Source: a virus. From it: DNA of 50,476 bases. The stretch covers positions 1-50,476 of the IMG/VR virus record IMGVR_UViG_3300003635_000005. One strand, written 5' to 3'. The translations under genes were made by a program, and so were the position numbers. Under the pieces are notes generated by a model that saw only the letters and a program-made list of their open reading frames with translations, was not told where the DNA came from and ran no database searches. Below, piece after piece: positions 24,211 to 50,476 of the stretch (within the stretch, counting starts at the first letter, position 1; each line of letters starts with the position of its first letter).

Positions 24211-26391
24211 ATGCAAGAGAGTAAGGCACTCGCTCGTTGGCTCCGTGACCTCACGGCCACGTATCACAACGAGGGAGACAAGGTTGACGTTGAGTTAACG
24301 GATCCGCGGGAGGGGAGTTATGCCGCACGAGACGGCTCCCATATCGGTATCAACCCCGCGGTGGAGGAGACCTTTGGAGTTGACGTGGAGCGGCCCAACC
24401 AACTCCGGGTAATATCGGACACCACGAGTCACGAGGTGGAGCACGTCAACGAGAGCGTGCTCACCCACAAGGCCGACTTTGCGGACGAGTATCCCATGGC
24501 GGCGGACGCCGCTGGCATGGTCCAAAACGTCCTTGAGGACACCTATATTGACCGCACCCGCACGGAGCGGTTTAGGGGCCTCCGGCGTGCTCACGCTTTC
24601 AAGATTGACACAATCATGGCCAATGACGAGGCCCGGCCACCCATGGAGGAGTGCAACCGTGGGCAAGCCTTTGTGGAGGGATTCTTGCAAGTGGCGTTTG
24701 CTGGCGGCGCAAAGGGAGACGTGACCGCTCACGAGGATCTTGAGGAGTGGTTGGAGTGGGTCAAGCCCATGATTGACCGTTGCCGGCATACCGACAACCC
24801 GGCGGGCCGGTATGAGATCTCCCACAAGGTCATGGTCAAACTCCTCACGTATCTCCCCGAGGAGGAGGCCCGCAAGCAAGCCAACGAGGCGGCGGACTCG
24901 GCGGCGGACGGCAACACCACGGACAAGACCGGAGACACCAGCGGTGACGCCGAGGATTGGAGCAAGGAGGAGGTGGAGGAGCACCTCAAGAGCCTCACCA
25001 AAGAGGACGTTGAGGACATGGACGGCGGTGAGGGAGGCCAAACGATTGACCCCGACGAGTTGGACGTGGACGAGGACGAGTTGGACTTTGATTGGGAGGA
25101 TCTCCCCGAGGGTGACGGCGGCGGTGGCGGCCCGGACACCACCGAGGAGGACGAGAGTGACGAGGGAGACGGCGGAGACGCCGGTGAGGAGGACGAGGAC
25201 GGTGACGAGGGAGACGGCGGAGACGCCGGTGAGGAGGACGAGGACGGTGACGAGTCCGATGACACCACCGGCGGTGACGAGGACGGTGAGGACGGCAACG
25301 AGGACACCGAGGAGGACGGTGACGGTGAGGACACCAGCGGTGAGGAGGATGACGCCGAGGACGTGAGCAACAAGAGCGGTGACGAGACCGCTCCCGGAGA
25401 GTTGGAAAACTCCGGCGGAGACCACGGACGAGGTGACGAGTTGGACGAGGACGTGGAGTTTGCTGGCCGCTCCGGTGAGTGGCACGGCCTCACGCAAGAG
25501 GAGGACTATGAGAGTCCGGGAGAGCAATGGGAGCGGCGTGCCGAGGCCATTGACCGGGAGGCCATGGAGGGCCAAACGGATCTCGGCCAACTCAAGCACG
25601 AGCGCCACGAGCGCATGGCCGAGGCGCAAGACTTTGGCCGGCAAAACTCCCACCGAGTCCGGGAGATCCTCCGTGACGAGGACACCGCTCAAGAGTTGAT
25701 TGACGCTTTCCGCCGGCTCCGCACGCGAGACGTTAAGGTGCCCGTCACCAGCGGTGAGGAGATCCACCTCAAAAACGCAATCCAACACCTCGCGGGAGAC
25801 TATACGGTGGAGCAAGTGTATCAACGCACCCGCCGGATTGAGACGGGAGACCGTGCCCTTGCCGTGAGTTGTGACCTATCCGGCTCCATGCGGCTCATGT
25901 CCGCTCTCACGGCTCTCGGTGCGTGCTACATATGCACCCGAGAGATTGGTGATGACTTTGCCGCCGTGGGATTTCACGGAGGCAACAACACCCCACTAAT
26001 CAAGGCGTTTGACGAGACGTGGGAGTGGGAGTTGGTGGACGGCGTGACCGCTGGCGGATCCACTCCCATGCCCGCCGGGATTGACACCGCACTCAATCTC
26101 TTTGACGGCGTGCGAGGCAAGGAGCGGGTGCTCATAGTCATCACGGACGGCATGGCCAACACCTCGTTGGACGGCGGAGACCCCGCCGAGGAGAGCGCAA
26201 GCCTCGTCACCACCGCTCAACAAGAGGGTGTCAAGGTCATTGGCCTCGGCGTTGGTGGTGTCAACGAGGAGTATATGCGCCGGATCTTTGGGAGTGACGG
26301 GTATGTGCTGGCGGACTCTCACAAGTTGGCCGAGGCGCTCATTGAGATCTATTACCGCCAAATGGATCTCGTCAAGGAGGGAGTGGTCTAA
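24211..26391 (+). CDS. VWA-domain protein with N-terminal HEXXH metallopeptidase-like region (CobT/NorD type)
   Basis: A 726-residue protein. Residues 74-78 are HEVEH, with a possible third ligand Glu109 in NVLEDTYID, the pattern of metallopeptidase-like domains fused to VWA. Residues about 235-420 are a very acidic low-complexity linker that includes a 45-bp tandem duplication. From about residue 545 a VWA domain follows, with MIDAS elements DLSGS (about 554), GGSTPM and VITDG (about 643). Such proteins act with MoxR-type AAA+ ATPases (CobS-CobT, NorQ-NorD). The matching ATPase is at 27914, and both genes share promoter type and start context. Confidence 0.8.
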   Translation: MQESKALARWLRDLTATYHNEGDKVDVELTDPREGSYAARDGSHIGINPAVEETFGVDVERPNQLRVISDTTSHEVEHVNESVLTHKADFADEYPMAADAAGMVQNVLEDTYIDRTRTERFRGLRRAHAFKIDTIMANDEARPPMEECNRGQAFVEGFLQVAFAGGAKGDVTAHEDLEEWLEWVKPMIDRCRHTDNPAGRYEISHKVMVKLLTYLPEEEARKQANEAADSAADGNTTDKTGDTSGDAEDWSKEEVEEHLKSLTKEDVEDMDGGEGGQTIDPDELDVDEDELDFDWEDLPEGDGGGGGPDTTEEDESDEGDGGDAGEEDEDGDEGDGGDAGEEDEDGDESDDTTGGDEDGEDGNEDTEEDGDGEDTSGEEDDAEDVSNKSGDETAPGELENSGGDHGRGDELDEDVEFAGRSGEWHGLTQEEDYESPGEQWERRAEAIDREAMEGQTDLGQLKHERHERMAEAQDFGRQNSHRVREILRDEDTAQELIDAFRRLRTRDVKVPVTSGEEIHLKNAIQHLAGDYTVEQVYQRTRRIETGDRALAVSCDLSGSMRLMSALTALGACYICTREIGDDFAAVGFHGGNNTPLIKAFDETWEWELVDGVTAGGSTPMPAGIDTALNLFDGVRGKERVLIVITDGMANTSLDGGDPAEESASLVTTAQQEGVKVIGLGVGGVNEEYMRRIFGSDGYVLADSHKLAEALIEIYYRQMDLVKEGVV
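25159..25248 (+). repeat. 45-bp tandem duplication in the acidic linker
   Basis: Two adjacent 45-base units (25159-25203 and 25204-25248) encode two copies of a 15-residue acidic, Gly-rich peptide containing GDGGDAG and EEDEDG. It changes only linker length in the VWA protein. Confidence 0.8.
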
Positions 26392-27913: not shown

Positions 27914-28519
27914 ATGCAAGCGAAAGACGCAATTGACGCCATAGAGGACGGCAACGAGACGGTCAAGGAGATTGCCGAGTATCTTGACCTCCACAAAAAC
28001 AACGTGGGCAAGCAACTCAAGCGCATAGCGGAGGATCCGGGCAACCCCGTGGACCGGGAGCCGGAGGGCCGTGGTCATCGGTATTACCTCAACGAGGATC
28101 TCACCAGCGGAGACGCCGCCGAGGCAACGCCGGTTGCTGGTGGCCGAGACTATGATTGGGAGGAGTATCTCCCGGACCCCAACCGCGTGCCCGCATATGA
28201 GCCGTTTAGGGACGAGTGGGACGGTATCAATGACGAGATTGACTTTGTGCAAGAGTGGTTGGAGGACCACCCGGACCCCGAGAGTTGGGAGGACGCCGCA
28301 TGGGAGCCGCGGCTCCCGCACTTCAAATTGGAGGGGCCAACCGGGAGCGCAAAGACCACGCTTTTCAAATCGCTGGCGTTGGAGCGTGGGTGGCCCGTCT
28401 TTACCCTACAAGTGGCCTATCAAATGGACAAGTCCGACATTGTGGGGAGTGCCCGGCTCCGTGCTGGTGAGACCGTATGGCAAGACGAGGTGCTTGTCAA
28501 AACCGGCCCGTGGTCCTAA
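27914..28519 (+). CDS. MoxR/CobS-type AAA+ ATPase, N-terminal part (HTH plus Walker A)
   Basis: A 201-residue frame. Residues 1-60 are a winged helix (VKEIAEYLDLHKNNVGKQLK then a wing GHRYYL). After an acidic linker comes FKLEGPTGSAKTTLFKSLA with Walker A at 141-149, and then DKSDIVGSARLRAGETVWQ, the post-Walker A segment of MoxR proteins. The frame stops at 28519 just before the Walker B region, which continues in another frame. It is therefore half of an ATPase unless the two frames are joined by frameshifting or the assembly lacks one base. Partner: the VWA protein at 24211. Confidence 0.78.
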   Translation: MQAKDAIDAIEDGNETVKEIAEYLDLHKNNVGKQLKRIAEDPGNPVDREPEGRGHRYYLNEDLTSGDAAEATPVAGGRDYDWEEYLPDPNRVPAYEPFRDEWDGINDEIDFVQEWLEDHPDPESWEDAAWEPRLPHFKLEGPTGSAKTTLFKSLALERGWPVFTLQVAYQMDKSDIVGSARLRAGETVWQDEVLVKTGPWS

Positions 28520-29265
28520 TCGTTGACGAGGCCAACCGTGCGCCGCCGAGAGCAAAGAGTGCGCTCTTTGAGTCTCTTGACTTTCGGTGCGCCATTGAGT
28601 TGAAGGGACGAGGCGGTGAGGTGATTGAGGGCAACCCCTTCAACCTCATAGTTGGTGCCACTATCAACAAGGGGCCGGGATACCACGTTGAGCCGATTGA
28701 CAAGGCCGAAAAACGCCGATACGGCAACACGTGGGAGGTTGGATACCTCGGCATGGCTCCCGAAAACGAGGACGGCGTGAGTGGCAAGGAGCGTGAGGCG
28801 GATCTCATTGCCAGCAAGTCACCGGCCAGCAAGCGCCTCGCGGAGTTAATGGTTGAGGCGGCCAACGACGTCCGTGAGCGGGCCGAGGACCCCACGAGTG
28901 ACGTGCGGAGTGGCCTCCCGGTGGACTATACAATCTCGTGGGCACAAACGGCGGCGGCACGCCACCACGCGGGCCGTGATAATCCCGTCATCAAGGCCGG
29001 GCAAGCCGCGGTCATTGACTCATACTATGACGAGAGACAAGAGGAGGCCGACGAGGTGTTTAGCGTGCTCACCTCGCACCTTGACGGCGTGCCGTTTGAG
29101 CGTGACGAGTTGAGCGAGTGGGCCGGCGGAGCCGAGGAGAGAGTCACGTGCATGAATTGCGATTATACGGACAGCGTGGACGAGGCCGAGAGTCAAGGCG
29201 TGCTTGATTGGATGGAGTGCCCGGAGTGCAACCATGACGTTAAGCGAGTGGGTGGAGGTGAGTAA
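28477..29265 (+). CDS. MoxR/CobS-type AAA+ ATPase, C-terminal part (Walker B) with zinc ribbon
   Basis: A frame open from 28477, one base back in phase relative to the previous gene. Homology begins at PVVLIVDEANRAPP (about 28507), the Walker B motif with the MoxR-type NRAPP, followed by a sensor-1 region (FNLIVGATIN) and the C-terminal lid. The end carries CMNC...CPEC, a zinc ribbon. ATG 28477 has GGTGAG upstream, but its first ten residues look like an out-of-frame translation. Either two subunits are made or one protein is produced across the break. Confidence 0.72.
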   Translation: MARRGACQNRPVVLIVDEANRAPPRAKSALFESLDFRCAIELKGRGGEVIEGNPFNLIVGATINKGPGYHVEPIDKAEKRRYGNTWEVGYLGMAPENEDGVSGKEREADLIASKSPASKRLAELMVEAANDVRERAEDPTSDVRSGLPVDYTISWAQTAAARHHAGRDNPVIKAGQAAVIDSYYDERQEEADEVFSVLTSHLDGVPFERDELSEWAGGAEERVTCMNCDYTDSVDEAESQGVLDWMECPECNHDVKRVGGGE

Positions 29266-35237: not shown

Positions 35238-35310
35238 ACTCCCGTGGTGTAGTGGCCAATCATACGTGCCTTTGGAGCACGTGACCCCGATTCAAATTCG
35301 GGCGGGAGGA
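35238..35310 (+). tRNA. tRNA-Gln (anticodon UUG)
   Basis: The 73 bases fold as a tRNA: acceptor 35238-35244 with 35303-35309 (an A.G mismatch at 1-72, six pairs after it), a D arm with AGTGGCCAA loop, an anticodon stem CGTGC/GCACG with loop CTTTGGA (anticodon TTG), a 4-base variable loop, and a T arm CCCGA/TCGGG with loop TTCAAAT. The discriminator is A and CCA is not encoded. The D-arm sequence is like that of haloarchaeal tRNA-Gln. It would read CAA, the almost exclusive Gln codon of this genome. Confidence 0.9.
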
Positions 35311-35424
35311 CTTTAGCACTCTCCGCCGTTTATACAAAGCCCTTGAAAGCGTGGAGCACCTCGCTCGTGCCCGCTCGTGCCGTCTCGCTTAGTTGCTCCG
35401 GTGTCCTTAGCACTATCACGCACG

Positions 35425-40614: not shown

Positions 40615-40916
40615 CCGACGAGTTGGGTGCGGAGTATCGGTATCTATGCACCACGTGCCACGAGATCCTTGACCCACGCGAGGTCCGCCAGCATACCGGG
40701 GAGTGCGCCGCCGTCTCCACGCTCTCCCGGTTGGATATGTGGCTCACGGACAACGTGGACTCGTGCCCGGAGTGCGAGGCCAGCGTGGAGGAGATCCGTC
40801 CGCCGCACCACGCTCATTGGATACCGTGGCACGAGGACGGAGCCGAGAGCGTGCTCCTCAAGCCGTGCGGGCACGAGGTGGACACCGAGGAGGTCATCAA
40901 TGAGCACGGAGAGTGA
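40611..40916 (+). CDS. Zinc-finger protein before the large terminase, 101 residues
   Basis: Starts at ATG 40611 (MTDELGAEY). It has LCTTCHEILDPREVRQHTGEC, with C..C....H....C spacing like a C2HC finger, and CPEC...KPCGHEV as a second site. The large terminase gene begins inside its last 17 bases, so the two are co-translated. Confidence 0.52.
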   Translation: MTDELGAEYRYLCTTCHEILDPREVRQHTGECAAVSTLSRLDMWLTDNVDSCPECEASVEEIRPPHHAHWIPWHEDGAESVLLKPCGHEVDTEEVINEHGE

Positions 40917-41874
40917 CCAACCGGAGGATAGGGGCCTCCGCAACGCCACGGTGTATGGCTTTGAGCCGCTTGAGTGGCAAGACCCCTTTATCCACACAAC
41001 GGCCCGCGAGGTGTTGGGGAGCGGCGCTTTCGGATCCGGTAAGAGCCGGGCACTCAACGAGCGTGGCGTGCTCTTGAGCATAGCCTATCCGGGCAATATC
41101 GGCCTCCTCACCCGTAACACGCTCAAGGCACTCCGCAACACCACGTTGGAAAACCTCCGCAACGAGGTGCTCCCTCGCTCGTGGATTATCCCGGAGTTGA
41201 CCAACCAGCAAAAGCAAGTCATTGCAATCCAATCCCCGCTTTACCCGGCCTCATATTGCCCGGAGTGTGGCCACGAGAGTGAGCGGCGCACGCACGAGGA
41301 GACGGTGGAGTGTCCGGCGTGCCACGAGGCGCTCCTTGAGGCGGTGCCGGCCTCACTAATCTATTATGACGGCCTCCAAACCACCGATGACGCCGACATA
41401 CCGGAGAATATCCTAAGCCTTGAGTTGGGGTGGATTGGCGTGGACGAGGCAAAGGACATTGAGGAGAGCGCGTGGAAAGCCCTCAACGGACGGCTCCGGT
41501 TGGAGCGCCTCAACAATCCGTATGTGCCGGAGTTGCCCTTTCGCACCATTTTCGGCACCACCAACCCGGCGGATCCTAACCATTGGCTCCACAAGCGATT
41601 TTATGAGGACGGCGTGGGGGAGTATTACGAAAGCGAGACCACGGACAACCTCGCAAATCTCCCCGATGACTATTTGCAAACGCTCAAGGAGCAATATGGT
41701 GAGGACACCAGCGAGGCGCTCCGGTATATCCGCGGCAAGTGGACGGGATACTCCGGCCTCGTGTTTGACGAGTTTAAGGACGAGATCCACCTCGTTGAGC
41801 CGTTGGACGTGCCGGAGATCCTCGGTGACGGGTGGACAGGAGGAGTTAGAGGCCAACGAGCAAGAGGTGAGTGA
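40900..41874 (+). CDS. terL: Large terminase, ATPase part (frame 1)
   Basis: From ATG 40900 this frame encodes 324 residues with an adenine-binding-type WQDPF (26-30), Walker A GSGAFGSGKS (40-49), a CPEC...CPAC zinc insertion (about 119-150), and Walker B-like GWIGVDEAKD, then FGTTNP (coupling motif). This is the packaging motor domain. The frame ends at 41874 in a linker, and the nuclease domain continues in the +1 frame from about 41837. Either this is a true split, a programmed +1 shift near ACAGGAGGAG, or an assembly error. Confidence 0.82.
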   Translation: MSTESDQPEDRGLRNATVYGFEPLEWQDPFIHTTAREVLGSGAFGSGKSRALNERGVLLSIAYPGNIGLLTRNTLKALRNTTLENLRNEVLPRSWIIPELTNQQKQVIAIQSPLYPASYCPECGHESERRTHEETVECPACHEALLEAVPASLIYYDGLQTTDDADIPENILSLELGWIGVDEAKDIEESAWKALNGRLRLERLNNPYVPELPFRTIFGTTNPADPNHWLHKRFYEDGVGEYYESETTDNLANLPDDYLQTLKEQYGEDTSEALRYIRGKWTGYSGLVFDEFKDEIHLVEPLDVPEILGDGWTGGVRGQRARGE

Positions 41875-42571
41875 GCAAGTCGGGGTGCCCAACAAGCCGG
41901 GCCAATACACTCCGGCCCGAGTGTATCCTCCCGAGGACGCCAGCATACTCATGGCGATTGATTGGGGATATAGGCCGGACCCACTCGTGGTCCAATGGTG
42001 GGCACTCACCGAGACCCACGGCTTTGTGCTATATCGGGAGTGGTTCAAGAGCCGAGTGCTCCCCGATGACGCCGCACGGGAGTGCATGGATCTCATGGAG
42101 CCGTATGAGTGCAACAACGTGGTCCGGTGCTATGCGGACCATGATAGTGGAGACCGTGAGAGTTGGCTCAAGGGTGCCCGCGAGTATGTCAACGAGGGAG
42201 TGGAGGAGGGCCGGTGGGAGGGAGACACCAGCAAGCCGGATTGGCGGCGGGTGCAAACCACCGCCGCCGCAAAGGACCGGGAGAAAGGCGTGCAAGAGGT
42301 CAAGCGCCGCATGAGGCCGGACAAGCACAACCGGGCCGAGGTCCACCTCGTCAAGGGAGCGCGTGCTCACCAAATTGACCGGCAACTCAACTCCGCGGAC
42401 AAGCCGGGCCGCACCCTCGCGGAGATCCGCGGGTATGGGTATGAGGACGAGGATAGTGACAACCCGCAAGACGGCAATGACCACGGTGTTGACACCATGC
42501 GGTATTGCATTTACTCCCACCGTAAGAAGGGACGCACCAGCGGATCCGGCTCCTCCGTCATCAAGAGTTAG
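41837..42571 (+). CDS. terL: Large terminase, nuclease part (frame 2)
   Basis: This frame continues the linker (QEELEANEQE) and then gives the RNase H-like nuclease: ILMAIDWGYRPDP (first catalytic Asp), YADHDSGDRESW (second Asp), and GVDTMRYCIYSH (third Asp). It ends in a Ser/Gly-rich tail. If translated alone, the best start is GTG 41867, which overlaps the stop of the first part (GTGAGTGA). Reading both parts as one protein would give about 570 residues, a normal terminase length. Confidence 0.78.
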   Translation, partial: QEELEANEQEVSEQVGVPNKPGQYTPARVYPPEDASILMAIDWGYRPDPLVVQWWALTETHGFVLYREWFKSRVLPDDAARECMDLMEPYECNNVVRCYADHDSGDRESWLKGAREYVNEGVEEGRWEGDTSKPDWRRVQTTAAAKDREKGVQEVKRRMRPDKHNRAEVHLVKGARAHQIDRQLNSADKPGRTLAEIRGYGYEDEDSDNPQDGNDHGVDTMRYCIYSHRKKGRTSGSGSSVIKS

Positions 42572-49162: not shown

Positions 49163-49437
49163 AAGACACCAGCGAGATCCTCAAGGAGGCCGGCGGGTAT
49201 GAGGGCATAGTCAAGGGCATGGACGAGGATCTTGCCCGGACTAAACGGCAACGTGAGGTGGAGAGTTGCTTTGGCAAGAGCCTCCCGGCGGTGCTCCGGG
49301 AGTTGCACGGCAAGGAGGACTCAAAGGCGGCCATGCTCCGCCGTATCAACGAGGCGTTGGAGGCCAACAACTTTGACGGCTCACTCTCTCGGCCCACGCT
49401 TTACTCGTGGCTTGACACCGTGGAGTTGGACGCTTAG
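49159..49437 (+). CDS. Small helix-turn-helix protein, 92 residues
   Basis: Coupled by ATGA to the membrane gene. The C-terminal half (SKAAMLRRINEALEANNFDG, then LSRPTLYSWLDTVEL) is a likely helix-turn-helix with the recognition helix at RPTLYSWL. The N-terminal half is a charged helix. It may regulate the head operon starting at 49785. Confidence 0.52.
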   Translation: MKDTSEILKEAGGYEGIVKGMDEDLARTKRQREVESCFGKSLPAVLRELHGKEDSKAAMLRRINEALEANNFDGSLSRPTLYSWLDTVELDA

Positions 49438-49784
49438 GCCAACCTTCTTAATGGAGTGCCGTCTTGCCTTACTTGCGTCTCCCACCGGAGACGTATGCCG
49501 GTCTCGGGCCGGTTGTCAGAGGCACCACGTCTCCCCACTCGGGCACGTGGTCTCCCCCACCGCCACCGACGAGGGCCAGCACGCGGGGTGCTAAAGCCGG
49601 CTTTTCTCCGGCAAACACCTCCGCACGCTCCACCCTTTCCCCTACCCACTCCCTTCATGCGATTAGTGGAGACCTCCGTGCTCCTTAGTGCGAGAGTGTT
49701 AAGCGATTGTGTAAACCGTTTAGTCACGGCCAGCGGCCCGCTTTTTACATCACATTAAGTAAGGAGGCCCTTGAGGAGGCTTGT
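49438..49784 (+). promoter_or_regulatory. Non-coding, pyrimidine-rich region before the protease gene
   Basis: No gene is supported; open frames here are basic and unlike the rest of the proteome. It has hairpins CGTCTCC-CACC-GGAGACG (49476-49493) and GCCGG-CTTTTCT-CCGGC (about 49591-49607), a C/T-rich tract (about 49610-49655), and an A/T-rich end (TTTTTACATCACATTAAGTA) that probably contains the promoter of the head operon. It could also hold a packaging or transcription termination signal. Confidence 0.45.
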
Positions 49785-50476
49785 GTGGCAAGCGAGACCC
49801 ACAAGGACGAGGAGGTAAGCAAGCCACTCCCCGGTGGCTCCTTTGAGGGGTGCGTCCGGCGTTTTGGACAAGATCCGGGGATTGATGACCCCGAGGCGTT
49901 TTGCGGTTGGTTGGAGCAACAAGCGAAAGAGGGCAACGAGGCCGTCCTCAATTGGGACGCCGAGGAGGATACCGTTGAGGATCTCATTGAGGCCCTCAAT
50001 GACCCCGAGGCGGAGAAAGTGCTCCAAAACCTCACGGTCACATACGTGAGCGGCGTTGAAAATCCGGCTCAAGACTCGCAATGGGTCATGGCCAAAGACG
50101 CCGATGACCGCGGAGCGGATTGGGGTGTCACCGCACCCCTTGTGGTCAAGGAGGGAGATCTCCCGATGACCGACGAGGACGGTGAGGAGGAGCAAAAGGC
50201 GTGGGCACCCGTCTTAATCCCCAACGAGACCGACAAGCAAGGTGACGTTATCCCGGTCAAGGAGATTGAGACGGCGGCCCATGACTTTCTTGCCGAGTAT
50301 CGGCAAGTGGATACGGACCATGACCTCCTCGCTGGCAAAGGCACGCCAATTGAGAGTTGGACACTCAAGACGGACACCACGTTTGACCTCCCGGACGGAT
50401 CCGAGAGCCGCGAGTATCCCGCGGGCACGTGGTTTATGGGTGTCCAATTCACGGACGAGGCGTGGGACCGTATCAA
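49785..50476 (+). CDS. XkdF-like head maturation protease, N-terminal part (continues at base 2)
   Basis: Starts at GTG 49785 with GAGGAGG six bases upstream. The first 130 residues are acidic and helical, not part of the protease fold. From about residue 130, AWAPVLIPNETDKQGDVIPV, KEIETAAHDFLAEYR and VDTDHDLL follow the XkdF-type protease, with the catalytic His expected in DTDHD; the Ser motif GFS is encoded after the contig joint. The protease would trim scaffold and capsid protein during head maturation. The full product is 507 residues. Confidence 0.82.
   Translation, partial: MASETHKDEEVSKPLPGGSFEGCVRRFGQDPGIDDPEAFCGWLEQQAKEGNEAVLNWDAEEDTVEDLIEALNDPEAEKVLQNLTVTYVSGVENPAQDSQWVMAKDADDRGADWGVTAPLVVKEGDLPMTDEDGEEEQKAWAPVLIPNETDKQGDVIPVKEIETAAHDFLAEYRQVDTDHDLLAGKGTPIESWTLKTDTTFDLPDGSESREYPAGTWFMGVQFTDEAWDRI
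50378..50476. repeat. Right copy of 99-bp terminal direct repeat (assembly overlap)
   Basis: Identical to bases 1-99. Removing one copy gives a circular sequence of 50,377 bp. Confidence 0.95.

What the first reader, a model, noticed from the sequence alone, without database searches (positions are those of the whole stretch)
41800..41880. Large terminase interrupted by a +1 frame change in the linker
Seen: the ATPase part ends at 41874 while the nuclease part is in the +1 frame from about 41837. The site has GGTGGACAGGAGGAG, which contains one of the rare CAG exceptions and an SD-like AGGAGG. GTG 41867 overlaps the first stop as GTGAGTGA. Options: two-subunit terminase made by coupled translation, SD-stimulated +1 frameshifting, or an assembly error. 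Two split key genes in one contig make either recoding or local sequence error worth settling.
Basis: partly seen in the sequence, partly recalled or inferred. Interest (0 to 1): 0.7.

Follow-up and report, generated by a model that had tools for sequence, protein, structure and literature searches.

The report
Terminase gene broken by short deletion
The DNA-packaging enzyme gene of this salt-lake archaeal virus is split in two reading frames because a dozen or so bases seem to be missing from the record, most likely an assembly error or a stray mutation rather than a new way of making the enzyme.

Summary
In detail: the large-terminase (TerL) ATPase part ends at 41874 in frame 1 and the nuclease part lies in frame 2 from about 41837. 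All 17 related contigs compared (16 viruses; two contigs are one virus) carry TerL as one open frame. Between an invariant W and the nuclease they have 19 residues (15 of 17 contigs) or 17 (2 of 17). The tetramer CAGG/CCTG is otherwise absent from this virus: the only copy in 50,476 nt (544 expected) sits exactly on the frame joint. The joint is therefore probably not native, selected sequence. The second split gene, a CobS-type AAA ATPase (joint near 28500), is 19 nt short inside its AAA core, where two chains could hardly work. No slippery site, correctly placed stimulator or RNA structure supports recoding, and AGGAGG is common here (155 copies on both strands). Best reading: a small net deletion, more likely a consensus or assembly error than a recent real lesion. 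I cannot see reads. A two-chain terminase is not formally excluded (about 7%).

The parts
40900..41874 (+). TerL ATPase part, frame 1; homology ends at about 41838, the rest (to the TGA at 41872-41874) is out-of-frame tail
   Evidence: Pfam Terminase_3 E 1.4e-8; PHROG terminase large subunit E 1.6e-18; 46% identical to HHTV-2 TerL over 310 columns; predicted fold matches D6E, Sf6 and P74-26 TerL
41837..42571 (+). TerL nuclease part, frame 2
   Evidence: PHROG terminase large subunit E 1.2e-11; 53% identical to HHTV-2 TerL C-terminus; predicted fold of 41867-42568 matches SPP1 TerL nuclease, Foldseek E 4.8e-5
41831..41845 (+). frame joint GGTGGACAGGAGGAG; holds the only CAGG/CCTG of the window (at 41837); 40 nt from the W codon to the QVG motif where relatives have 57 (15 of 17 contigs) or 51 (2 of 17)
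41825..41827 (+). GTG in the nuclease frame with GGAG 7 nt upstream: the best-placed possible start of a separate nuclease chain (alternative: GTG 41867)
   Evidence: no evidence of use
27914..28519 (+). CobS-like AAA ATPase, first part (frame 2), through Walker A
   Evidence: Pfam AAA_5 profile positions 4-63 of 139; matches HHTV-2 gene 10
28477..29265 (+). CobS-like AAA ATPase, second part (frame 1), from just before Walker B (PVVLIVDEANRA); joint near 28500-28506, about 19 nt short of relatives
   Evidence: PHROG 29395 E 1.5e-73

Best explanation
The record carries a small net deletion (about 17 nt, or 11 nt if the native linker was of the shorter kind) in the linker between the ATPase and nuclease domains of an otherwise ordinary single-chain TerL of a HHTV-2-like (Saparoviridae) haloarchaeal tailed virus. 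The deletion shifts the frame and created a tetramer, CAGG, that this lineage does not otherwise contain. Its most likely cause is an assembly or consensus error; it is not an evolved recoding site. Shown here: the frame change, the length deficit, the conserved single frame in relatives, and the unique forbidden tetramer at the joint. Inferred: that it is an error rather than a real recent mutation (given as the first rival; the two together stand at 0.83).
For: 17 of 17 related contigs (16 viruses; L035 and L036 are one) have ATPase and nuclease in one frame with no stop across the junction. Linker length is nearly constant, 19 residues in 15 of 17 and 17 in 2 of 17, against 40 nt in the window (the script printed 32 for L038 because it took an earlier W, and the sequence reads 19). 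CAGG/CCTG occurs once in the window, at the joint, with 544 expected; synonymous shuffles expect 82 and genes show 0; L021, 96-97% identical to the window DNA in three blocks, has 0 against 50 expected. Simulated 11-23 nt deletions create one of 18 strongly avoided tetramers in about 12% of joints and CAGG/CCTG in 2-3%, while a native 10-nt stretch holds an avoided one in 0.4%. A second conserved gene (CobS-like AAA) shows the same kind of damage, 19 nt short, between Walker A and Walker B. The other 30 matched HHTV-2 proteins show no frame change.
Against: I have no reads, and no close relative covering this gene was found. A 99-nt exact terminal repeat suggests a de Bruijn assembly in which spanning k-mers should come from reads, so a real deletion in part of the population is possible. 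The CobS joint holds no avoided tetramer, so the tetramer argument covers TerL only. Linker length does vary by two residues in relatives, so the native length here is inferred. The 11 avoided-motif pairs were chosen from this same window.
Confidence: 0.55

Rival explanations
1. Genuine recent deletion in the sampled virus: the molecule exists but its TerL (and CobS) is inactive, as in a defective or mixed population complemented by intact genomes.
For: Same data as the best explanation; a terminal 99-nt repeat suggests k-mer assembly from real reads. The unique CAGG fits a joint not yet purged.
Against: Two independent frame-breaking deletions in two conserved genes of one near-complete genome, with 30 other matched genes in frame, would make it doubly defective; such a genome should not dominate a consensus.
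Confidence: 0.28
2. Two-chain terminase: the ATPase is made from 40900 and the nuclease separately from GTG 41825 (GGAG 7 nt upstream) or GTG 41867 (overlapping the stop as GTGAGTGA) by coupled translation.
For: Each half is a recognisable domain with its own predicted TerL fold; start codons lie in suitable places.
Against: No relative does it (0 of 17 contigs). The linker is short by a non-multiple of three and carries the only CAGG of the genome. GGAG/AGGAGG and GTGA are very common here. The same event in CobS cuts an AAA core, where a split would be useless.
Confidence: 0.06
3. Programmed +1 ribosomal frameshifting in TerL, slipping for example on GGG-T at 41830-41833.
For: GGG to GGT re-pairing is possible in principle, and +1 frameshifting has been suggested in another halovirus, HSTV-2 (review PMC8211752, passages seen).
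Against: It would drop the W found in every TerL compared. The SD-like AGGAGG lies downstream, not upstream, of the slip. No unusual downstream structure (z 0.32), no Rfam hit, no relative with the shift. A selected site would be expected to lack the purged CAGG.
Confidence: 0.03

Closest known systems
HHTV-2 TerL (gene 31, KC292024.1 15670-17364) and other Saparoviridae-like TerL
   Same: Same two domains at 46% and 53% identity; in both, the genome also holds the portal/Mu-gpF fusion downstream
   Different: One open frame with a 19-residue linker; the window is 17 nt shorter and frame-broken
HCTV-2 TerL (gene 22)
   Same: Same family, 41-45% identical
   Different: One open frame, 19-residue linker
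Programmed frameshifts of haloviruses (HVTV-1, HCTV-1/2/5 -1; HSTV-2 +1), as cited in PMC8211752 (passages)
   Same: Frame change inside a gene of a haloarchaeal tailed virus
   Different: From recall these are tail-assembly genes; no conserved site, slippery sequence or stimulator here
Motif purging in haloviruses (Hardycor1, PMC7911831, passages; arTV survey, PMC8651126, passages)
   Same: Near-absence of particular 4-mers, AGCT and CTAG included
   Different: The set purged here (CAG in most contexts, GAAC, TCGA, GTAC) differs from the Hardycor1 list; it served here as a test of the joint

Membership tests
TerL (Terminase_3-type large terminase) | N-terminal packaging ATPase with P-loop | tested here: met
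   Pfam Terminase_3 E 1.4e-8; GSGAFGSGKS aligned with the relatives' GAFGxGKT; fold match to TerL structures
TerL (Terminase_3-type large terminase) | C-terminal RNase H-like nuclease with conserved acidic residues | tested here: met
   IDWGYRPDP and YADHDSGD conserved; fold match to SPP1 nuclease domain
TerL (Terminase_3-type large terminase) | Both domains on one polypeptide | tested here: not met
   Frame change at about 41837 in this record; met in 17 of 17 related contigs
Programmed +1 ribosomal frameshift | Frame change conserved in relatives | tested here: not met
   0 of 17 related contigs
Programmed +1 ribosomal frameshift | Slippery codon with re-pairing plus a stimulator (upstream SD-like, hungry codon, structure) | tested here: not met
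   Only GGG-T can re-pair; AGGAGG is downstream of it and common; structure z 0.32
Programmed +1 ribosomal frameshift | Fused product made | not testable with these tools
   needs proteomics or a reporter
Split (two-gene) terminase | Independent start and ribosome access for the nuclease chain, conserved | tested here: inconclusive
   GTG 41825 and GTG 41867 exist but no relative shares the split, so there is no conservation to test
Assembly or consensus indel | Intact form in reads or in a second copy of the same virus | not testable with these tools
   No reads; no other copy of this gene at high identity in viral contigs or in one scan of genome contigs

The most novel reading that the evidence does not exclude
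This one lineage really makes TerL as two polypeptides. The nuclease would be re-initiated at GTG 41825 or 41867 inside the end of the ATPase gene, and the single CAGG of the genome would be kept at that point for a reason, for example as a recognition or pause site.
Probability: 0.07. Interest if true: 0.6.

Novelty: not a real feature. Interest (0 to 1): 0.13.

Why it matters
It keeps a false 'split terminase' or 'recoded terminase' out of the record. It also gives a reusable check: in viruses that have purged a short motif, a lone copy of that motif at a frame break marks a non-native joint. If the two-chain reading were true, it would show that packaging ATPase and nuclease need not be on one chain.

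Tried and rejected
Looked for the same or a near-identical terminase to read the joint directly. Two exact 20-21-base patterns flanking the joint gave 0 matches in viral contigs. Searches with the nuclease, the ATPase (one distant relative, L028, 26% identity over 128 residues, not used) and a nuclease alignment found only relatives at about 55% identity or less. One genome-contig scan gave one remote bacterial MAG hit (L049). L048 and L049 are remote and were left out of the linker count, though both are open across the region. The only close relative, L021, covers the capsid region, not the terminase. The second half of CobS found no relative in viral contigs.

Simple 1-nt insertion or 2-nt loss: rejected as the full explanation, since the linker is 11 or 17 nt short. 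Repeat-mediated slippage: no direct repeats near either joint that would explain it. Downstream stimulatory structure: z 0.32. Rfam: nothing. Frame scan by codon usage was noisy; it did show the change from frame 1 to 2 at about 41791. Literature: 'split terminase' 0 papers; 'terminase large subunit' + 'split into two' + phage 24 papers, 20 listed, three opened in passages, none of whose passages describes a split TerL; frameshift + halovirus + terminase 1 paper, seen only in the listing. These cover only the open-licence PMC library.

Full report
What is there. The window is a virus record of 50,476 bases with a 99-nt exact terminal repeat, so it closes to a circle of 50,377 bases. The prohead-protease gene runs across that closure in a consistent frame. 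Its relatives HHTV-2 and HCTV-2 have circularly permuted genomes (PMC3950731, passages), and HHTV-2 belongs to Saparoviridae. The terminase ATPase part (40900-41874, frame 1) and nuclease part (frame 2 from about 41837 to 42571) are both unmistakable: Terminase_3 and PHROG terminase hits, 46% and 53% identity to the two halves of HHTV-2 TerL, and predicted folds matching solved TerL ATPases and the SPP1 TerL nuclease (the models are of modest confidence, mean pLDDT 73 and 65).

What relatives show. I compared the joint with 17 contigs. L035 and L036 are the same virus, so these are 16 viruses. Duplicate loci (L037, L041, L045, L046, L047) were dropped because they repeat contigs already counted, and the remote L048 and L049 were left out. 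All 17 read through from ATPase to nuclease in one frame. From an invariant tryptophan to the [QP]xG motif before the nuclease, 15 of 17 have 19 residues and 2 of 17 (L042, L043) have 17. The script printed 32 for L038 because it picked an earlier W; the sequence shown gives 19. The window has 40 nt in this interval, where relatives have 57 or 51. The record is thus 17 or 11 nt short, which moves the nuclease to the next frame. This is a small net deletion, not a one-base insertion.

The forbidden tetramer. This virus almost completely lacks a set of 4-mers: AGCT 0 of 123 expected, CTAG 0 of 80, GCAG/CTGC 0 of 474, CAGG/CCTG 1 of 544, GAAC/GTTC 4 of 469 and others. The single CAGG is at 41837, on the joint. 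It is the only 4-mer that occurs exactly once in the window with both strands pooled. With synonymous codons shuffled among 27 genes (27.1 kb), 82 CAGG/CCTG are expected (63-102 in 200 shuffles) and 0 are seen. The near-identical contig L021 has 0 of 50. HHTV-2 and the eight other terminase relatives tested there (L003-L010) do not purge CAGG, so this is a trait of this lineage. Purging of restriction motifs is known in haloviruses (PMC7911831, passages; PMC8651126, passages). If 17 nt are cut out at random positions of the window, 12% of joints gain one of the 18 avoided tetramers and 2% gain CAGG/CCTG; a random native 10-nt stretch holds an avoided one in 0.4% of cases. The joint thus looks like a junction that has not been through this virus's selection.

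The second split gene. HHTV-2 gene 10 (annotated AAA domain; taken here as CobS from the account of CobS/CobT in PMC8651126) matches the window in frame 2 (27914-28501) and then frame 1 (to 29241). In HHTV-2 and in two relatives eight residues separate the K of 'ETVWxDGxLTK' from 'PxVLIVDEAN', and HCTV-2 shows the same spacing (L031). The window has 5 nt there, so it is 19 nt short (my count). Records holding this gene are intact: 4 of 13 records searched had it, all four without stops, plus HHTV-2. The break lies between Walker A and Walker B of one AAA_5 domain, where two separate chains would hardly work. Its joint holds no rare tetramer, which neither supports nor weakens the tetramer argument for TerL.

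Mechanisms considered. For +1 frameshifting, only GGG-T at 41830-41833 can re-pair, it would skip the invariant W, the AGGAGG is downstream of it, and the stretch below folds no better than shuffles. For a two-chain terminase, GTG 41825 (GGAG 7 nt before it) or GTG 41867 could start the nuclease, and both domains are complete, so it cannot be excluded on anatomy alone. But no relative does it, the deficit is not a multiple of three, and the CobS break shows that the record contains a break of the same kind that is hard to see as functional. I therefore hold a net deletion at 0.83 for both causes together, and within that favour an assembly or consensus error (0.55) over a real recent lesion (0.28). 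That last split is judgement, not measurement.

Limits. No reads, no second copy of the gene, no access to the source metagenome. The motif set was chosen in the same window in which it is applied; the CAGG argument does not depend on the set, only on its single copy falling on a joint that homology had already placed.

Noticed in passing
window 1-50476: Extreme short-motif avoidance: AGCT, CTAG, GCAG/CTGC absent; CAGG, CAGT, CAGA, GAAC, TCGA, GTAC nearly absent; CAG/CTG occurs almost only as CCAGC/GCTGG (226 of 242 preceded by C, 233 of 242 followed by C). Shared by L021, not by HHTV-2 apart from AGCT and CTAG.
   Followed up: partly
window 35238-35311: A tRNA-Gln with anticodon TTG, in a genome whose genes use CAA 250 times and CAG 13 times for Gln in the 27 genes counted.
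   Followed up: no
window 27914-29265: CobS-like AAA ATPase split between frames, about 19 nt short between Walker A and Walker B.
   Followed up: partly
window 24211-26391: CobT-like vWA protein in one 726-aa frame; both HHTV-2 genes 2 and 3 match it in the same frame, and PMC8651126 (passage) says that HHTV-2 cobT is split in two ORFs.
   Followed up: no
window 1-99 and 50378-50476: Exact 99-nt terminal repeat: the record closes to a circle of 50,377 bases, perhaps an assembler k-mer overlap.
   Followed up: no
L021 (IMGVR_UViG_3300007038_000137): 4.6-kb contig about 96-97% identical in DNA around the capsid gene, with indels near window 49430-49500 against it and no gaps in the two other high-identity blocks: a near-twin from a numbered sample that may help to find this virus's terminase in reads.
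   Followed up: partly
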